DNA of 64,000 nt from Xanthomonas sp. CFBP 8443 (GTDB taxonomy: Bacteria; Pseudomonadota; Gammaproteobacteria; Xanthomonadales; Xanthomonadaceae): contig NZ_CP102592.1 in assembly GCF_025666195.1 (NCBI RefSeq), positions 2,480,001 through 2,544,000 on the forward strand, in the 5' to 3' direction. This document shows positions 1-12,596 of this stretch, piece after piece. The number at the start of each line of letters is the position of its first letter. Positions within the stretch are counted from its first letter, which is position 1. The notes beneath the pieces were generated by a model. It did not search any database, was not told where the DNA came from, and saw only the letters and a program-made list of their open reading frames with translations. The position numbers were made by a program, and so were the translations under genes.

Positions 1-787
1 CGCCGGCGGGAACGTGGGCGAAATCGTCCCATTCTATCGCCACCGAACGCATCCGGTCGCTGAAATTAGCCGCCGTACTGATTGACTGCGTGATAGATGC
101 CTGGCCGCCGGCCGCGCGAACGCGCCATAGATATACCAGTTCGGGGATGATCGCGGTGCGTCGGCTTAGGAAGTAGGCTTTATGCACGAACGGGCGATCC
201 GCATAGAGCAGGCCGGGAACCATGCCCAGCTGGTGTTCACGCAAGAACGTGGTGCGGAACACCTTGTTCCAATAAAAGCCGTCGTGAATGATGTCGGGGA
301 ACTCTGTCACCGAATCGATCACCCTGCGCCGGCTCCACACGAACGGCTCGTATAAGAATGCGACAGAAGAGTGAGCGCCATCATCGGTGAGTCGCGCGGC
401 GCGTCCGATGACGATGTCGGCGTCACAGCGCAGCGCCTCGGCGATCAGCAGTGCATAGCCATCGGACGTCACCACATCGTCCGAATCGACCAGCGCCACG
501 TACTCACCGCGCGCCATCGCGATGCCTAGGTTGCCCGACACTGCGCCGCCTTCGTTGTCTTTGGTCAGGCAGCGGAAGTTTGGATGGCGTGCCTCGTAGT
601 CGCGGCAGATCGCCAGGCTGTCGTCGCTGCTGGAGTCGTCGATTGCCAGGATCTCGATGTTGGTGTAGCGCTGCGTCAGTAGCGAGTCGAAACATGCCGG
701 AAGGTAGGGGGCCGTGTTGTAGACCAGCACCACAAGCGAAAGCAGCGGCGTAGCATCGGGTTCAGATGCCGCTTGGATCGGGTTCAT
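1..787 (-). CDS. Family-2 glycosyltransferase, 3' end outside window
   Basis: The reading frame is open from ATG at 787 to the window edge, so about 262 N-terminal residues are visible and the C-terminus is missing. The N-terminus has the GT-A fold pattern of family 2: SLVVLVYN, then EILAIDDSSSD, then a nucleotide-sugar/metal motif VALVDSDD (DxD type). Enzymes of this family transfer an activated sugar to a glycan, lipid or protein acceptor in the cytoplasm; the donor and acceptor cannot be read here. Its ATG overlaps the stop of the ATP-grasp/HAD gene (ATGA at 784-787), so it belongs to the same operon and probably acts on the same glycerol-phosphate-containing glycan. Confidence 0.85.
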   Translation of the reverse strand, partial: MNPIQAASEPDATPLLSLVVLVYNTAPYLPACFDSLLTQRYTNIEILAIDDSSSDDSLAICRDYEARHPNFRCLTKDNEGGAVSGNLGIAMARGEYVALVDSDDVVTSDGYALLIAEALRCDADIVIGRAARLTDDGAHSSVAFLYEPFVWSRRRVIDSVTEFPDIIHDGFYWNKVFRTTFLREHQLGMVPGLLYADRPFVHKAYFLSRRTAIIPELVYLWRVRAAGGQASITQSISTAANFSDRMRSVAIEWDDFAHVPAG

Positions 788-2064
788 GCGCGCCACTCCA
801 GCAGTTGTTCTATGGCGTCCACGTCGAAAACCGGGATGCCATGGGTATCGAGTACGTCGCATCGCTCGCGGTAGGAGTCGTCGATGAACAAGGCTCCTTT
901 GGTGTGCGTGACGTACCGGCTCTTTGGCGCGCCATCCTCGATATGCAGTATTTCGTCGAACAGTTCGGCGCTGATGCGGTAGTGCGCCAGCGTCTGTCGC
1001 GGACAGTGCGCATGGCGGGTGATCAGGCTGACCCTGACGCCGCGGTTGGACCACTGGTAAAGCAGCGCCATCAGCAGCGGGTTGACCCGGTCATCGATTA
1101 TCAAAGTATCATCCAGATCCAGGTATACCCGCTCGTAGCGTAGCCCGGTACGGAACCGGCTGTGCAGGGCGCGGTCCATTTGGATTGGGTAGTTTTGCGC
1201 GCAGACACTGAAAGGCATGCTCAAGTGCGCATAGATGCTCAGTAGCGGGTAGTTGACGCCGAGGTTGCGTGACAGTCCCATCGAACCTGCTATGCGCGGC
1301 GCCACTTCGAGCAACTTGGGCACGCCTTGCGCATCTCGGCGCGCTTGGAAGAACCATGCGCCGCGCAGCCTCAGTTCTGCAGCGATCGAAGCGGCCATCG
1401 CGTCGATCGACGGATCGGTAGCGACCGGCTCGGTGCGCACGCTGATGCCACCCTTGATCCGGCTACGCACGCGCGGGGCGGCATGCAGCAGAGCGCCGGC
1501 GTGGTCGGAGATGCAGTCCACGGTATATTCTGCGCCAGGAAGATATTCGCTGAAAACGTACTCGATGGGGCTGTCGCGCAGTTGGCGATGGCGGGCCGCG
1601 TTGTCTACGCGTTCCGCGCCCTGGCTGCCTTGGCCGACCGCTGGCTTGGCGAAGATCGGATAACCCGGCGTTGCACTATCGATATCGGCAGGCACTATGC
1701 CCAGCGGACGTAGCCGTGCGTAGGCGAGGTTCTTGTTGCGGCATAGTGCTGCGGTTTCGGCGTCTGGGACCATTGCCGCGGCCCGCAATTTCGAATGATG
1801 CTGGGCCAGCACTGGAATCACGCTGTCATGTGCGGGAAGCACGATGTCGATTTTCCATTCATCGATCAGCTGATTGAGCTGCTCGATGAAGTCGGTCGAT
1901 GCGACATGTGCGTCTATCTGCCGATAGCGCGCGTAGACGAACTCCCCGTGATCGGATACCGACGAAGCGCCGTGAACGCGCACAACCTTGCTGTACTTCA
2001 ACGCTGCGTGGATCTCCAGACCTATTTCCGAACCACAGGGGAAGACGAGCGCATTTAGGATCAA
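784..2064 (-). CDS. ATP-grasp / HAD two-domain fusion protein
   Basis: 426 residues in two recognisable halves. Residues about 1-290 are ATP-grasp-like: glycine-rich loop KPAVGQGSQG at 140-149, SEYLPGAEYTVD near 172-183 and the metal-site strand LLEVAPRIAGS near 251-261. Residues about 313-426 are a HAD phosphatase-type domain with all four motifs: DLDDT (316-320), Thr in ITRH near 349, Lys in PKS near 381, and FIDDS near 393. ATP-grasp enzymes join a carboxylate to an amine or thiol through an acyl phosphate; HAD domains usually hydrolyse phosphate esters. The combination suggests a ligase and phosphatase acting on one pathway intermediate, but no substrate is evident. Start overlaps the upstream stop by 4 nt, as does its stop with the next gene. 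Confidence 0.8.
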   Translation of the reverse strand: MILNALVFPCGSEIGLEIHAALKYSKVVRVHGASSVSDHGEFVYARYRQIDAHVASTDFIEQLNQLIDEWKIDIVLPAHDSVIPVLAQHHSKLRAAAMVPDAETAALCRNKNLAYARLRPLGIVPADIDSATPGYPIFAKPAVGQGSQGAERVDNAARHRQLRDSPIEYVFSEYLPGAEYTVDCISDHAGALLHAAPRVRSRIKGGISVRTEPVATDPSIDAMAASIAAELRLRGAWFFQARRDAQGVPKLLEVAPRIAGSMGLSRNLGVNYPLLSIYAHLSMPFSVCAQNYPIQMDRALHSRFRTGLRYERVYLDLDDTLIIDDRVNPLLMALLYQWSNRGVRVSLITRHAHCPRQTLAHYRISAELFDEILHIEDGAPKSRYVTHTKGALFIDDSYRERCDVLDTHGIPVFDVDAIEQLLEWRA

Positions 2065-3620
2065 GGAGCGCCTCCAAATACGGCTTCAATCACGCGCCGT
2101 GCCACGTTTCCGTCGTTCAATGCGCAGTAGCGACGACGAAAGGCGGCGTAGCGCCCTGCATATGCCTCAGTGACCGTCGGCAGATCGCCGAATAGCGCTA
2201 CCAACTCCGCTGTGGTGCGCGCCAGCGGGCCGGGCAGGTCGCGCTCCACGTCTAGGTAGAAACCACGGATCTCCGACGCGTACAGCTCCAAGTCGTAGCA
2301 GTAGAACAGGATCGGTTTTCCAGTGACGGCATAGTCGAAGAGTACCGAAGAATAGTCGGTGATGAGCACGTCGGCGAGCAGGCACAGCTCGTTAATGTCA
2401 TCCAAGTGCGAAAGGTCTACCACGTTGGCCGGTAGAGCGTCAGGATCCAGGCGCGCGGCGACCAAATGGTGAGCTTTGACCAGCAACGTCTGCTTCGGCG
2501 CCAGCGCCGAAGACAACGCCTGCAGGTCCAACTGTAGGTCAAAATCGAAACGCCATGCCCCGATTGGCTTGTGGTCGCGCCACGTTGGCGCATACAGCAC
2601 GAAGCTGTGATCCGAAGACAGGCCCAGGCGCGCTGCCAACGCGGCTCGGTCTAGGACGGGATTGAACAATGGATCGGTCAACGGATAGCCGGTCTCCAGG
2701 ATTGGCCCGCAGTAGCGGAAGGCGCGGCGGAAGATTTCGGTGGAGTAAGAGTTCTCGCTGAGCAGTACGCTCCAGCCGCGCGATTCGCGGTAGAAATTCT
2801 CGCGCGCGTCGGCTTCCGGCCCGGCGACCTCGATGTCGTAGGAAAGTCGCTTTAACGGCGTGCCATGCCAAGTCTGTAAGTACACGGTCTCCGGCTTGCG
2901 CCCAGGCGCGGCGAAGAGCACGTTGTTGACCCGGTACTTGGCCTGTGCCAGCAGCCGGTAGTAGTCGGGTGAGCCACGCACCACCCGCGGTGGATCGCCT
3001 GGAATCGGCTGATTGCCGCTGTAGGCCCAGGCGCAGCGCAGGTCCGGGCGAAGCTCACGCAAGGCTTCGTAGACATAGCGCGGATTGCCGGCGTAGCTCT
3101 TGCCGAGGAAGCTCTCGAACAGGACCAGATCTTCCTGCAGTGGCAGCTCCCGCAGCCAGTCCCCGAAACGGGCCTTGGCGTTCTCTGCGGCCACCATGCG
3201 CTGGTGCTGTGCGTGCGGAGCAACGTACAACACCAGTGAGCCCACGCTATCACTCAGATAGGCCGACAAACCGTGCGCGCCAACGCGCTGCTCAAGGAAA
3301 TGCCGCGGGTGACCGGGACTCGGCGACGAGATCAGTGGCAGCACCGTTTCGCCGTTGGACTGTCTGCGGCACAACTGCACATCCCAGCGGCCGGCCGGCG
3401 CGTCGAGCAGCGGATGAATCGGAACTGCAGCACGCAGCTCGCCGGCTACGGCCTCACACGCGGCAACGAGCGTATCGCCGCCATCGCGCCTAACCAGGCG
3501 CAGTTCCCATGCCTCGGCACGCCGCGACGGCACCCACTGAAGCGCTACGCGCAACACATTGTCATGCAGCGACAACCCACTCGGCACATCGAAAGCGAGT
3601 TCCCGCACACTCGGCTCCAT
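2061..3620 (-). CDS. CDP-glycerol glycerophosphotransferase, TagB/TagF family
   Basis: About 519 residues. The C-terminal two thirds carry the poly(glycerol-phosphate) transferase signatures: TWHGTPLKRLSYD, ETGYPLTDPLF, the catalytic-region LVKAHH, and ADVLITDYSSVLFDY. These enzymes transfer glycerol-phosphate from CDP-glycerol to a glycan acceptor at the inner face of the membrane. The N-terminal 150 residues look like a separate accessory region. A longer frame opens at 3761, but that would overlap the cytidylyltransferase gene by 133 nt; the ATG at 3620 sits 8 nt after that gene's stop and is preferred. It makes a natural pair with the TagD-like gene just upstream, which would supply CDP-glycerol. 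Confidence 0.85.
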   Translation of the reverse strand: MEPSVRELAFDVPSGLSLHDNVLRVALQWVPSRRAEAWELRLVRRDGGDTLVAACEAVAGELRAAVPIHPLLDAPAGRWDVQLCRRQSNGETVLPLISSPSPGHPRHFLEQRVGAHGLSAYLSDSVGSLVLYVAPHAQHQRMVAAENAKARFGDWLRELPLQEDLVLFESFLGKSYAGNPRYVYEALRELRPDLRCAWAYSGNQPIPGDPPRVVRGSPDYYRLLAQAKYRVNNVLFAAPGRKPETVYLQTWHGTPLKRLSYDIEVAGPEADARENFYRESRGWSVLLSENSYSTEIFRRAFRYCGPILETGYPLTDPLFNPVLDRAALAARLGLSSDHSFVLYAPTWRDHKPIGAWRFDFDLQLDLQALSSALAPKQTLLVKAHHLVAARLDPDALPANVVDLSHLDDINELCLLADVLITDYSSVLFDYAVTGKPILFYCYDLELYASEIRGFYLDVERDLPGPLARTTAELVALFGDLPTVTEAYAGRYAAFRRRYCALNDGNVARRVIEAVFGGAP

Positions 3621-3628
3621 GGCGCGCG

Positions 3629-4075
3629 TCAGCGCGAGGAACGCAGCGGTAGCACGGCGACATCGACGGCAGCTTGCGACGCTGGCGCATTCTCGCGCGC
3701 AAGCGCTTTCAGTGAAGAGCTGGAGATGTTCTCGGTGCGCGGCAGATAGCGCACCTGACAATAGCGGGAGAGGAAATCAAACTCACCTTGCCAGTCCGAT
3801 CCCATCACCAGCAGGTCGCCGTGGTACTTGCGGATGTCGTTGGCCTTTTGCTCCCAACTATCTTCGACAAAAACGTCGTCAACGTAGCGGATCGCGCGCA
3901 ATACTGCTTCGCGGCTGGCATAGTCCTGCAGAGCGCTCTTGTGCTTGAGCGCGTTGAACGTATCGCTGGAAAGTCCGACCAACAGCCTGTCGCCTAGCTC
4001 GCGCGCGCCGCGCAGCAGATTTATGTGGCCCACATGCAGGAGATCGAAGGTGCCGTAGGTCAGAACGACGGTCAT
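3629..4075 (-). CDS. Glycerol-3-phosphate cytidylyltransferase-like (TagD family)
   Basis: 148 residues, the usual size of TagD. The nucleotidyltransferase signature GTFDLLHVGH (HxGH) is at residues 7-16, and the second signature appears as RTENISSSSLK, in place of the usual RTxGISTT. The predicted reaction is CTP plus glycerol-3-phosphate giving CDP-glycerol and pyrophosphate. It heads the four-gene operon and has a Shine-Dalgarno sequence (AGGAG, about 8 nt upstream). A 59-nt gap separates it from fleQ and holds no promoter I recognise, so it may be read through from the rpoN2-fleQ operon. A related polyol phosphate cannot be excluded as substrate. Confidence 0.87.
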   Translation of the reverse strand: MTVVLTYGTFDLLHVGHINLLRGARELGDRLLVGLSSDTFNALKHKSALQDYASREAVLRAIRYVDDVFVEDSWEQKANDIRKYHGDLLVMGSDWQGEFDFLSRYCQVRYLPRTENISSSSLKALARENAPASQAAVDVAVLPLRSSR

Positions 4076-4134: not shown

Positions 4135-5621
<1,487 letters not shown>

Positions 5622-5625
<4 letters not shown>

Positions 5626-6018: not shown

Positions 6019-7416
6019 TTAGCTCGCGCGGGCCAGCAGCGGTTTGGCGCGACGGCGTTCGCGGGCGGGGGCGATATCCAGTTGTTCACGGTACTTGGCC
6101 ACGGTGCGCCGGGCCACGTTCACGCCCTGGCGCGCCAGCAAGCCGGCGATCGCCTCGTCGGCCAGCGGCCGCCCCGACGGCTCGGATTCGATCAGGCGCC
6201 GCACCATCGCGCGCACCGCCTGTCCCGAGACCGCGGCGCCTTCCAGGCGCACGGCGAAGAAATGCTTCAGTTCGAAGGTACCACGCGGCGTCTGCAGGTA
6301 TTTGCCGGTGGTGATGCGCGACACGGTGGATTCGTGCATGCCGATCGCGTCGGCCACTTCCTTCAGGGTCAGCGGCGCCATCGCTTCCTCGCCCTTGACC
6401 AGGAACGCGGCCTGGCGCTCGACGATGGCGCGGGTGGTGCGCAGCAGGGTCTCGTAGCGCATCGACAGGCCGCGGGTCAGCCAGCGCGCTTCCTGCAGCA
6501 TCTCGCGCAGCGGCGCCGCCGCCTCGCCGGCCTCGGCCAGGGCGCGCTCGTGCATCGGGTTGACGGTGACGCGGTGGGTGGTGGCCGGGTTCAGCGCGAC
6601 CCGCCAGGTGCCGTCGCTGTGCCAGGCGACCACGTCCGGGATCACGTGGCCCAGGTTTTCCGGCAGCAGGCTGTCGCCGGGACGCGGCTGCAGCGACAGG
6701 ATCAGCCGCACCGCTTCGCGCACGTCGTCGGCTTCGGCGTCGAGCTGGCGCGCCAGCAGCGGGTAGTCGTGGCTGGCGAGCAGGTTCAGGTCGCCGGCCA
6801 GGATGCGCGCGGCCAGGTGGCGGCCGGCGACGCGGCCGGGTAGGGCGGCCAGCTGCACGCTCAGGCATTCGCGCAGGTCGCAGGCGGCCAGGCCGGCGGG
6901 GTCGCCGTGCAGCAGCCGCTGGCGGACCGCCTCCACCTGCGCGGCGGGCTGGTCGAAGCGCGCGCAGGCGAGCAGGGTCAGCGTGTCCAGCGCGCCGTCG
7001 AGGTAGCCGGCATCGTCGCTGTGCTCCAGCCAGAACGCGGCCACTTCCAGCTGGCGCTCGTCCAGTTCCAGCGCCAGGCGCTGCAACACCCGCACCTGCG
7101 GGTCGGTGGATTCGCCGGCAGCGATGCGCTGCATGCGGTCGTCCTCGCCTTCGCTCCAGCCGGCGACGGGGATATCCCACATCGAGGATTCGGGCAGCTC
7201 GTCGAACGCGGCGGTTTCCAACGCGTTGTCGTGATCGACGACCGGCTCGAGCACGCCTTCCGGCTCTTCCAGTTCCAGCAGCGGGTTGTTCTCCAGCGCG
7301 CGCCGGACTTCCAGTTCCAGTTGCATCCCGTCCAGCTGCAGCAATCGGATCGACTGCAGCAACTGCGGCGTCAGGTGGAGGTGCTGGCCTAGCTGGGCGG
7401 AGACGGTCGGCTTCAT
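6019..7416 (-). CDS. rpoN2: RNA polymerase sigma-54 factor RpoN2
   Basis: 465 residues with the full sigma-54 layout: Gln/Leu-rich region I (QLGQHLHLTPQLLQSIRLLQL-type stretch at residues 8-28) that is held by activators, an acidic region II, a core-binding middle, a helix-turn-helix (TLKEVADAIGMHESTVSRIT) and the C-terminal RpoN box ARRTVAKYRE that reads the -24 element. Location in the flagellar cluster next to fleQ matches the second, flagellar copy known in Xanthomonas, hence rpoN2. Its own upstream region carries two sigma-54 promoters, implying autoregulation or control by a second RpoN elsewhere. Confidence 0.93.
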   Translation of the reverse strand: MKPTVSAQLGQHLHLTPQLLQSIRLLQLDGMQLELEVRRALENNPLLELEEPEGVLEPVVDHDNALETAAFDELPESSMWDIPVAGWSEGEDDRMQRIAAGESTDPQVRVLQRLALELDERQLEVAAFWLEHSDDAGYLDGALDTLTLLACARFDQPAAQVEAVRQRLLHGDPAGLAACDLRECLSVQLAALPGRVAGRHLAARILAGDLNLLASHDYPLLARQLDAEADDVREAVRLILSLQPRPGDSLLPENLGHVIPDVVAWHSDGTWRVALNPATTHRVTVNPMHERALAEAGEAAAPLREMLQEARWLTRGLSMRYETLLRTTRAIVERQAAFLVKGEEAMAPLTLKEVADAIGMHESTVSRITTGKYLQTPRGTFELKHFFAVRLEGAAVSGQAVRAMVRRLIESEPSGRPLADEAIAGLLARQGVNVARRTVAKYREQLDIAPARERRRAKPLLARAS

Positions 7417-11417: not shown

Positions 11418-12596
11418 TTACTGCAGCAGGCTCAGCACGTTCTGCGGGACCGACTTGGCCTGCGCCAGCATCGCGGTACCGGCCTGCTGCAGGATCTGGG
11501 TGCGGGTCAGCTCGGCGGTTTCCTTGGCGTAGTCGGTATCGCGGATGCGGCTGCGCGAGGCCGACAGGTTCTCCGAGGTGGAGCTCAGGTTGGCGATGGT
11601 GGAGGTGAAGCGGTTCTGCACCGCACCCATGTCGGCGCGCGAGGAGTTGACCGAGGTCAGCGCCTTGTCGACGATTTCCAGGGCACGCTGGGCGCCGGAG
11701 AAGCTGGAGATGTCCAGGTCTTCCAGGGTGCTGGTGCTGCCGGCCACCGCGGTGGCGGTGGCAGCAACGCCACCGAAAGCCACGGTCACGCCAGTGGCGC
11801 TGCTGGTGCCGGCGGTGAACGAGAAGTCCGTGCCAGCCTTCAGCGATTCCAGCTTCAGCTTGCCTGCGTTGTCGACCGAGGCGTACACGCCGGTCTGGTC
11901 CAGCTTGTCGTTGATCGACGCGGCGACCTTCTTCTGGATGTCGGCGGCGGTGTCGCCGACGGCGACGCTGACGCTGGCAATCGACTTGCCGTTAACCGAG
12001 ATGCCCGAGATGCTGCCCGAAGCGGTCGCGGTGCCGGCGACGAAGGCGGCGGTGCTGGTCTGGTCGGCGGCGAAGCCGGCCTTGCCCAGCGAATCGACAT
12101 TGGCGTCGACGATGCTGTTGATGCCGATGGTCTGGCCGGCATCCGCGCCGACCTGGAACAGGGCGCCAGAGAAATCGCCGTTCAGCAGCTTGGTGCCGTT
12201 GAAGCTGGTCTGGTTGGCAACACGATCGATTTCCGAGGTGAGCTGCTTGACTTCCGAGTTCAGCGCCTCGCGGTCGGTGTCGGAGTTGGTGGCGTTGGCC
12301 GACTGCACCGACAGCTCGCGGATACGCTGCAGGTTGTTGCCGATTTCGACCATCGCGCCTTCAGCGGTCTGGGCCAGCGAGATGCCGTCGTTGGCGTTGC
12401 GCGAGGCGACGTCCAGGCCACGGATCTGGGTGGTGAAGCGCTCGGAGATCGCCAGACCGGCGGCGTCGTCCTTCGCACTGTTGATGCGCAGGCCCGAGGA
12501 CAGACGCTGGATCGACGTCGCCATGCTCGAGCTGGTGCTGTTGAGGTTACGCTGAGCGTTCAGCGACATTACGTTGGTGTTGATTACCTGTGCCAT
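11418..12596 (-). CDS. fliC: Flagellin FliC
   Basis: 392 residues with the conserved D0/D1 ends: [18 protein letters not shown] at the N-terminus and [20 protein letters not shown] plus PQNVLSLLQ at the C-terminus. The central 150 residues are Ala/Ser/Thr/Gly-rich and surface exposed. The flg22-type epitope at residues 30-51 keeps [12 protein letters not shown] with Asp at residue 43. ATG at 12596 follows GAGGAGATATC; an upstream in-frame ATG at 12629 would add 11 atypical residues. Single flagellin gene in the window, transcribed from its own sigma-28 promoter and ended by a strong terminator. Confidence 0.97.

What the first reader, a model, noticed from the sequence alone, without database searches (positions are those of the whole stretch)
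1..4075. Glycerol-phosphate operon with an ATP-grasp/HAD fusion attached to the flagellar regulators
Four genes overlap or nearly touch: TagD-like, TagB/TagF-like, an ATP-grasp/HAD fusion and a GT2. The first two are hallmarks of teichoic-acid-type poly(glycerol phosphate) synthesis, yet this is a Gram-negative genome. Position directly after rpoN2-fleQ suggests a phosphoglycerol-containing glycan on flagellin or a cell-surface polymer. Both halves of the fusion keep their catalytic motifs, so one protein may both ligate and dephosphorylate an intermediate. The system as a whole looks undescribed to me; that is inference.
Basis: partly seen in the sequence, partly recalled or inferred. Interest (0 to 1): 0.75.

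Follow-up and report, generated by a model that had tools for sequence, protein, structure and literature searches.

The report
Flagellin glycan island, ligase-phosphatase variant
The genes are part of a seven-gene island inside the flagellar locus that probably decorates the flagellum protein with an amino sugar and glycerol phosphate, with an unusual ligase-phosphatase enzyme standing where related bacteria keep an acyl-transfer pathway.

Summary
The four genes are real, on the minus strand, touching, and directly follow rpoN2-fleQ. Extending left in the same genome shows three more: a DegT sugar aminotransferase, a second TagF-like protein and a 1182-aa glycosyltransferase. Then come fliE-fliF-fliG; no LPS or capsule locus follows. 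Best reading: a flagellin-glycosylation island, a known kind, in a variant not found in my literature searches. The comparison does not tie the ATP-grasp/HAD protein to glycerol-phosphate chemistry. Across 33 distinct loci its constant neighbour is DegT (32 of 33; the exception is cut by a contig end); a CDP-polyol synthase is present in 27 of 33. In the family, 48 of 297 genomes carry this DegT: 30 with KASIII and a PglD-like acyltransferase, 12 with the ATP-grasp/HAD protein, none with both KASIII and that protein. I propose that it makes an amide on the DegT-made amino sugar, while TagD/TagF add phosphoglycerol (perhaps phosphoribitol in some sister islands). The HAD half rests on motifs and weak matches; the ATP-grasp half lacks one usual metal ligand. 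Substrates are unknown; no structure could be computed.

The parts
3629..4075 (-). TagD-like cytidylyltransferase, 148 aa (HVGH and RTENISSS motifs)
   Evidence: PF01467 6.4e-21; TIGR01518 158.2 bits, cut-off 165.4; PDB 2b7l 1.2e-42, 1coz 8.4e-41
2061..3620 (-). TagF-type CDP-glycerol glycerophosphotransferase, 519 aa from ATG at 3620 (longer frame begins TTG 3761); TWHGTPLKR, KAHHLVA, ITDYSSVLFDY present
   Evidence: PF04464 1.4e-98; PDB 3l7i TagF 8.4e-75
784..2064 (-). ATP-grasp (PF15632) fused to a short HAD-like domain, 426 aa, TTG start
   Evidence: PF15632 1.2e-21; invariant motif columns in 20 relatives; HAD half by motifs and weak matches only
1..787 (-). GT2 glycosyltransferase, 3' part beyond the window; full 505 aa at L003:14270-15787
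   Evidence: PF00535 1.2e-27, full length 5e-27
4135..5625 (-). fleQ, right-hand conserved flank of the island
   Evidence: beside the island in relatives
6019..7416 (-). rpoN2
11418..12596 (-). fliC flagellin, the probable target protein (ATG at 12596 read from the frame that starts TTG 12629)
   Evidence: relatives matched

Best explanation
A flagellin O-glycosylation island of seven genes between fleQ and fliE. DegT (VioA/DesI-like) aminates a dTDP-4-keto-6-deoxyhexose (an RmlB relative is elsewhere in the genome). The ATP-grasp/HAD protein then makes an amide on that new amine, using ATP and a free, possibly phosphorylated, carboxylic or amino acid; the HAD half removes a phosphate from the product. 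This step stands where most relatives use KASIII/SDR/PglD-like acylation. The large GT and the GT2 put the sugars on flagellin in the cytoplasm. TagD makes CDP-glycerol and the two TagF-like proteins add one or a few glycerol phosphates. Shown: gene content, order, location, conservation, module replacement. Inferred from families: each reaction. Guessed: the acid that is ligated, and that the HAD half acts on the ligated product.
For: Location: all 12 family islands with the protein have flagellar genes in the fetched stretch; 27 of 33 distinct loci overall. DegT near it in 32 of 33; an RmlB-like gene, DegT and ATP-grasp/HAD are consecutive in L043, without TagD or TagF. Module replacement: 48 DegT genomes of 297: 30 KASIII+PglD-like, 10 TagD+ATP-grasp/HAD, 2 IspD-SDR+ATP-grasp/HAD, 0 with both KASIII and ATP-grasp/HAD. 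Two further islands have, next to DegT, a stand-alone PF15632 ATP-grasp (G035) or a 393-aa protein with an E-V-N-P-R stretch but no Pfam match (G205). PglD_N plus hexapeptide and KASIII confirmed by Pfam on representatives. DegT's best solved relative is 2po3, 7.5e-68 (that this is DesI is recalled). TagD is the only copy in the genome at E 1e-12 and PF04464 has, besides the two island proteins, one weak hit; RmlB relative at C1:951694. Precedents: the C. difficile type B flagellin locus has an ATP-grasp and an FdtB-like aminotransferase gene (PMC5207246, passage), and its glycan an amino sugar with a taurine, alanine and glycine cap (PMC5207245, abstract). C. jejuni ligates a phosphorylated amine and then dephosphorylates it with two separate proteins (PMC12409886, PMC13276843, passages).
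Against: No chemistry, mass or mutant data. The usual Asn of the ATP-grasp metal site is Ala or Ser in 20 of 20 relatives, though BL00235 (3vot) reads E-V-G-A-R there. The HAD half has no confident family or PDB match. G094 has a weak PglD-like hit (35%) as well as the ATP-grasp/HAD protein. G199 has the ATP-grasp/HAD island but no large-GT hit in it. TagD and TagF1 fall below their NCBIfam equivalog cut-offs. DegT specificity is by similarity only. Three of the 48 DegT genomes (G092, G137, G196) show neither module. The protein's distance matrix correlates about as well with TagD (0.64, 21 loci) as with DegT (0.70, 29 loci).
Confidence: 0.6

Rival explanations
1. The ATP-grasp/HAD protein belongs to the polyol-phosphate branch: it ligates and dephosphorylates a glycerol-phosphate intermediate.
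For: Polyol synthase near it in 27 of 33 loci; TagD in 10 of 10 close-type family islands; distance correlation with TagD 0.64.
Against: No polyol synthase detected in L043, L058, L111, L112 and L115 (nor in L113, which is cut), while DegT is there in all five; 4 loci have an IspD-SDR protein (ribitol-type, recalled) instead of TagD; TagD with TagF-like genes occurs without it in L045-L050 and L054.
Confidence: 0.12
2. The island makes a cell-surface polymer (teichoic-acid-like, LPS or capsule) and only happens to sit beside flagellar genes.
For: TagF-type enzymes make polymers in Gram-positives; relatives of the ATP-grasp/HAD protein occur in O-antigen-like clusters L043 and L044 (read by eye).
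Against: No flippase, polymerase or ABC-exporter family matched any of the seven proteins in Pfam and NCBIfam at E 0.001; flagellar genes flank the island in 12 of 12 family islands and fliC is near it in most Pseudomonadaceae loci.
Confidence: 0.1
3. As in C. difficile type A and P. aeruginosa b-type glycans, the nucleotidyltransferase activates a phospho-amino acid and the TagF-like protein adds it, so there is no glycerol.
For: Those systems use a TagF-like transferase on flagellin, and CD0242 is also said to resemble CTP:phosphocholine cytidylyltransferase (PMC10714395, PMC11833859, passages).
Against: CD0242 is modelled there on GDP-mannose pyrophosphorylase; the protein here is closest to solved TagD chains, and sister islands carry an IspD-SDR protein in its place, which points to a polyol.
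Confidence: 0.08
4. The ATP-grasp half has lost catalysis (Asn to Ala) and only binds substrate; the HAD half is the enzyme.
For: Asn replaced in 20 of 20 relatives.
Against: K111, K140, Q240, E253, R257 and N271 are invariant in 20 of 20; 3vot, named an L-amino acid ligase in the PDB, also lacks that Asn.
Confidence: 0.1

Closest known systems
Xanthomonas oryzae ten-gene flagellin glycosylation island (Yu et al. 2018; title seen in a reference list, paper not held) and PXO_00987 acetyltransferase (Li et al. 2015; one citing sentence and the title seen)
   Same: A flagellin-glycosylation island in what I infer is the same genus. That it is the KASIII/PglD-type island seen here beside fleQ in relatives is my inference.
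   Different: KASIII/PglD-like module in 30 of 48 DegT genomes of the family; here ATP-grasp/HAD plus TagD and TagF.
Enterobacterales flag-2 variable region 1 (PMC6993521, outline and one passage)
   Same: TagD (235 strains) and TagB (65 strains) in a flagellar modification region; the authors suggest teichoic-type glycopolymers on flagellin.
   Different: The word ATP-grasp does not occur in the text; a different flagellar system.
C. difficile type B flagellin (PMC5207246 passages, PMC5207245 abstract)
   Same: FdtB-like aminotransferase and ATP-grasp genes in a flagellin locus, which the authors say may take part; amino sugar with a taurine, alanine and glycine cap.
   Different: FemAB-like and ornithine-cyclodeaminase-like genes there; no HAD fusion in the passages read, and CDP is not mentioned in the text.
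C. jejuni capsule ligase Cj1438C and phosphatase Cj1435 (PMC12409886, PMC13276843, passages)
   Same: ATP-dependent amide formation with a phosphorylated partner, then dephosphorylation.
   Different: Two separate proteins; the sugar supplies the carboxylate (GlcA), not the amine; capsule, not flagellin.
C. difficile type A / P. aeruginosa b-type flagellin glycans (PMC10714395, PMC11833859, passages)
   Same: A TagF-like phosphotransferase is proposed to add a phosphodiester-linked group to a flagellin sugar.
   Different: The group is a methylated threonine, from a proposed CDP-threonine, not a polyol.

Membership tests
Flagellin glycosylation island | Lies inside or beside the flagellar gene cluster | tested here: met
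   Between fleQ and fliE; flagellar genes in 12 of 12 family islands with the protein
Flagellin glycosylation island | Glycosyltransferase plus nucleotide-sugar modifying genes | tested here: met
   Two GT2 proteins and DegT
Flagellin glycosylation island | Flagellin actually modified | not testable with these tools
   Needs mass spectrometry
Glycerol-3-phosphate cytidylyltransferase (TagD, TIGR01518) | Score over the curated equivalog cut-off | tested here: not met
   158.2 bits against 165.4; nearest PDB chains are TagD
Teichoic glycerol-phosphate transferase TarF (NF041712) | Score over the curated cut-off | tested here: not met
   262.2 against 550; PF04464 itself is met, 330.7 against 22.1
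Wall-teichoic-acid pathway | Lipid-linked initiation and ABC export genes with TagD/TagF | tested here: not met
   None among the seven island proteins by Pfam and NCBIfam; the rest of the genome was not searched for them
ATP-grasp, ATPgrasp_Ter (PF15632) | Pfam gathering score | tested here: met
   77.3 against 29.1
ATP-grasp ligase | Metal-site residues Q/D, E, N | tested here: not met
   Q240 and E253 kept; N replaced by A (17) or S (3) in 20 of 20; N also absent in 3vot. The ligand roles are recalled from carbamoyl phosphate synthetase
HAD phosphatase | Motifs DxD, T, K, DD | tested here: met
   D316, D318, T349, K381, D395 in 20 of 20; D396 in 18 of 20; motif roles recalled
HAD phosphatase | Match over a curated HAD family cut-off, or to a solved HAD chain by sequence | tested here: not met
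   Best TIGR01487 E 7e-4, listed for 2 of 9 pieces; Cof-type for 4 of 9; PDB profile search at chance level, NagD E 0.44
C. difficile type A / P. aeruginosa b-type | Methyltransferase gene (CD0243/PA1088 type) with the TagF-like gene | tested here: not met
   No methyltransferase family among the seven proteins. Their phosphoserine-phosphatase-like gene has at most the fused HAD-like domain as a counterpart

The most novel reading that the evidence does not exclude
One polypeptide both ligates a phosphorylated acid (for example a phosphoglycerate or phospho-amino acid) to the amine of dTDP-4-amino-4,6-dideoxyhexose with ATP, and then strips the phosphate: an acyl-carrier-free way of N-acylating amino sugars that has replaced, or been replaced by, the KASIII/PglD route in flagellin glycans, with CDP-glycerol or CDP-ribitol decoration as a second exchangeable module.
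Probability: 0.33. Interest if true: 0.68.

Novelty: new variant of a known kind. Interest (0 to 1): 0.5.

Why it matters
It gives a widespread enzyme family without an assigned reaction (3538 protein hits at E 0.001 or less among 7998 scored candidates; those below the 120 listed may share only the ATP-grasp half) a concrete, testable reaction. It shows two chemistries filling one slot of a flagellin glycan. It also predicts phosphoglycerol, and in some relatives phosphoribitol, on the flagella of Gram-negative bacteria, in a family where flagellin modification has been tied to motility (PXO_00987, title seen).

Tried and rejected
Rejected: an LPS or capsule locus continuing to the left (fliE follows). 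Rejected: a 1794-aa ATP-grasp fusion in G016; it is a frame extension over a separate 1294-aa TPR-TagF-GT4 gene. Rejected as the main role: glycerol-phosphate chemistry for the fusion. Considered: an FkbH-like HAD half, because of a recalled resemblance of the last motif; no FkbH model appeared in the Pfam and NCBIfam scans at E up to 5. Considered: dropping the HAD label for want of matches; kept on motifs, marked weak. Led nowhere: literature searches for ATP-grasp with HAD and glycerophosphotransferase (0 papers) and for phosphoglycerol with flagellin (34 papers, 15 listed, none relevant by title). The profile search of the HAD half in the PDB was at chance level. No structure model was obtained, so no fold search was run.
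Full report
The observation. The window is G000:C1:2480001-2544000 of a single-contig 5.24 Mb genome. It belongs to the family of Pseudoxanthomonas and Stenotrophomonas: contigs of its family members G028, G062 and G276 have the same lengths as the named records of L034, L031 and L036. That it is Xanthomonas is my inference; no call names it. On the minus strand, after rpoN2, a response-regulator gene and fleQ, come a TagD-like cytidylyltransferase, a TagF-type protein, an ATP-grasp/HAD protein and a GT2. The fleQ-TagD gap is 59 bp, TagD-TagF 8 bp, then two 4-bp overlaps.

Extension to the left. L003 holds the next 15 kb. The GT2 is 505 aa in full. It is followed by a DegT aminotransferase (385 aa, PF01041 1.3e-100), a second Glyphos_transf protein (442 aa from GTG, 1.3e-44) and a 1182-aa protein with two GT2 stretches, then fliE, fliF and fliG. 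This is one seven-gene unit within the flagellar cluster, not the edge of a surface-polysaccharide locus. TagD has one match in the genome at E 1e-12. PF04464 has two strong hits, both in the island, and one weak hit elsewhere. An RmlB relative is present once, at C1:951694.

The proteins. TagD is nearest to solved TagD chains (1.2e-42) but is 7 bits under the equivalog cut-off. The first TagF-like protein aligns with a solved TagF over residues 208-557. The ATP-grasp half matches PF15632 and, as a profile of 20 relatives, 2pn1 (1.1e-17), the L-amino acid ligase BL00235 (3vot, 6.8e-8) and PylC (1.6e-5). K111, K140, Q240, E253 and R257 are invariant in 20 of 20. The Asn of E-x-N-P-R is Ala in 17 and Ser in 3; 3vot also lacks it. 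So two of the three usual ligands (roles recalled) remain. The last 117 residues carry DxDDT, T, K and (F)IDD; each catalytic position is invariant in 20 of 20 except the second D of the last motif (18 of 20). No curated family recognises them with confidence: 1 of 20 full-length members has a weak Hydrolase_6 hit, and of 9 cut pieces 2 list a phosphoglycolate phosphatase model (best 7e-4) and 4 Cof-type (best 0.031). 'HAD' is thus likely, but on motifs.

Distribution. The ATP-grasp/HAD protein is in 2 of 20 genus genomes (E 1e-20), 12 of 297 family genomes (E 1e-40), 5 of 369 class genomes, 5 of 398 phylum genomes and 13 of 278 genomes of the family of G459; the first four counts include the window's own genome and all the samples overlap. 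A scan of genome contigs with the single sequence gave 8 loci. In the family, the ten TagD matches of 69% identity or more are exactly the ten genomes with a close ATP-grasp/HAD protein. The two genomes with a divergent one (38-39%) have no TagD match and carry an IspD-SDR protein instead, with a Glyphos_transf (L026) or LicD (L025) protein. IspD-SDR fusion as a CDP-ribitol enzyme is recalled from capsule pathways.

Who goes with whom. I compared 34 loci, of which one (L106) repeats L029: 33 distinct. DegT is within about 8 kb, centre to centre, in 32; the exception, L113, ends at a contig end. Thirty of the 32 match the window DegT at 58% or more and two (L043, L044) at 38-40%. TagD (23) or IspD-SDR (4) is present in 27; flagellar genes in 27 (not in L043, L044, L105, L111, L113, L114). 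In L043 the order is an RmlB-like gene (58% identical to the window genome's own), DegT and ATP-grasp/HAD, next to genes that read by eye as a Wzx-type flippase and glycosyltransferases, with no TagD or TagF match. So the fusion's most constant partner is the aminotransferase. Distance matrices correlate at 0.70 with DegT (29 loci), 0.64 with TagD (21) and 0.41 with the large GT (24); this alone would not decide between DegT and TagD.

The slot comparison. I took all 48 DegT genomes of the 297 (E 1e-115 or less), fetched each locus and tallied neighbours. 30 have KASIII and a PglD-like protein, with an ACP-like 120-aa frame, SDR and Rieske proteins; 24 of these 30 also show the large GT in the stretch fetched. 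The ACP label is by eye and Pfam gives none. 10 have ATP-grasp/HAD plus TagD. 2 have ATP-grasp/HAD plus IspD-SDR, one of them (G094) with a weak PglD-like hit too. The large GT is seen in 11 of these 12, not in G199. 1 has IspD-SDR plus PglD-like (G222). 2 have other proteins beside DegT: in G035 a stand-alone PF15632 ATP-grasp, in G205 a 393-aa protein with an EVNPR stretch that no Pfam model recognises. 3 have neither module (G092, G137, G196). None of 48 has both KASIII and ATP-grasp/HAD. PglD_N/hexapeptide proteins are N-acyltransferases of 4-amino sugars (established knowledge), so the simplest reading is that the ATP-grasp/HAD protein does the N-acylation by another chemistry. In a DegT tree of 63 rows (of 65; L085 and L109 dropped) the 30 KASIII-type DegTs form one clade (100/96), drawn inside ATP-grasp/HAD-linked DegTs under a midpoint root; the root is not tested.

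Movement. Against G016, the other carrier among the 20 genus genomes, nucleotide identity is 97.6% for DegT, 97.9% for the large GT and 92.9% for the second TagF, yet 92.1% for fleQ, 90.6% for fliE and 90.5% for fliF, and only 76% for TagD and 70% for ATP-grasp/HAD. Against the KASIII-type G008 it is 93.3% fleQ, 96.1% fliE, 93.6% fliF but 80.7% DegT and 72.6% large GT.

Comparison with print. TagD and TagB in flagellar modification regions were described in flag-2 loci (PMC6993521) and TagD in Geobacillus (PMC5109656), each read as passages. The C. difficile type B locus has an aminotransferase and an ATP-grasp gene (PMC5207246, passage), and its glycan an amino sugar with a taurine, alanine and glycine cap (PMC5207245, abstract). 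C. jejuni uses a ligase followed by a phosphatase (passages). RpoN2 and FleQ are said to regulate flagellin modification in X. oryzae (PMC7970052, passage). I found no paper on the ATP-grasp/HAD fusion in flagellar islands in the searches; these cover open-licence papers only, and I read listings and some passages, not all papers.

Verdict. A flagellin-glycosylation island, a known kind, in a variant with an exchanged acylation module. The flagellin target is likely (about 0.85); amide formation on the DegT product is probable (about 0.7); phosphoglycerol is probable (about 0.7); the ligate-then-dephosphorylate order is a guess (about 0.4).

Noticed in passing
L029:8189-9823, L030:8189-9823, L042, L105: A 544-aa protein (no Pfam match for the L029 copy) or a 41% relative stands between TagD and the ATP-grasp/HAD gene where TagF1 is expected; one stretch resembles sialyltransferase (GT29) motifs by eye, from memory.
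   Followed up: no
L059, L062, L065 and the other KASIII-type islands (30): The common island of the family includes a Rieske oxygenase beside KASIII and a PglD-like acyltransferase, suggesting an oxidised acyl group on the flagellin sugar.
   Followed up: partly
L045-L050, L054: TagD (62-67% identity) with TagF-like and TPR proteins in family genomes, with no match to the flagellar reference genes in the 20 kb fetched: a second home for CDP-glycerol enzymes in this family.
   Followed up: no
L044:12129-13652: An asparagine-synthase-like gene (by eye) lies between TagF-like and TagD genes in an O-antigen-like cluster with DegT and ATP-grasp/HAD.
   Followed up: no
L025, L026, L058, L107-L110: A WbqC-like gene (label recalled, not scanned) accompanies DegT in these 7 of 33 loci, whose ATP-grasp/HAD proteins are 38-40% identical to the window's; six other loci at 38-44% lack it.
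   Followed up: no
G276:C163 and G276:C229 (L018, L028): Two ATP-grasp/HAD copies, each with its GT2, in one incomplete genome; could be two islands or mixed sequence.
   Followed up: no
L022 (G199): The ATP-grasp/HAD island lacks a match to the large GT that the 11 other family islands with the protein have.
   Followed up: no
L027 (G294): The island is broken by many frame changes in a 57% complete genome, probably sequencing error.
   Followed up: no
G000:C1:4561856-4562404: A third, weak Glyphos_transf match (27.5 bits) elsewhere in the window's genome.
   Followed up: no
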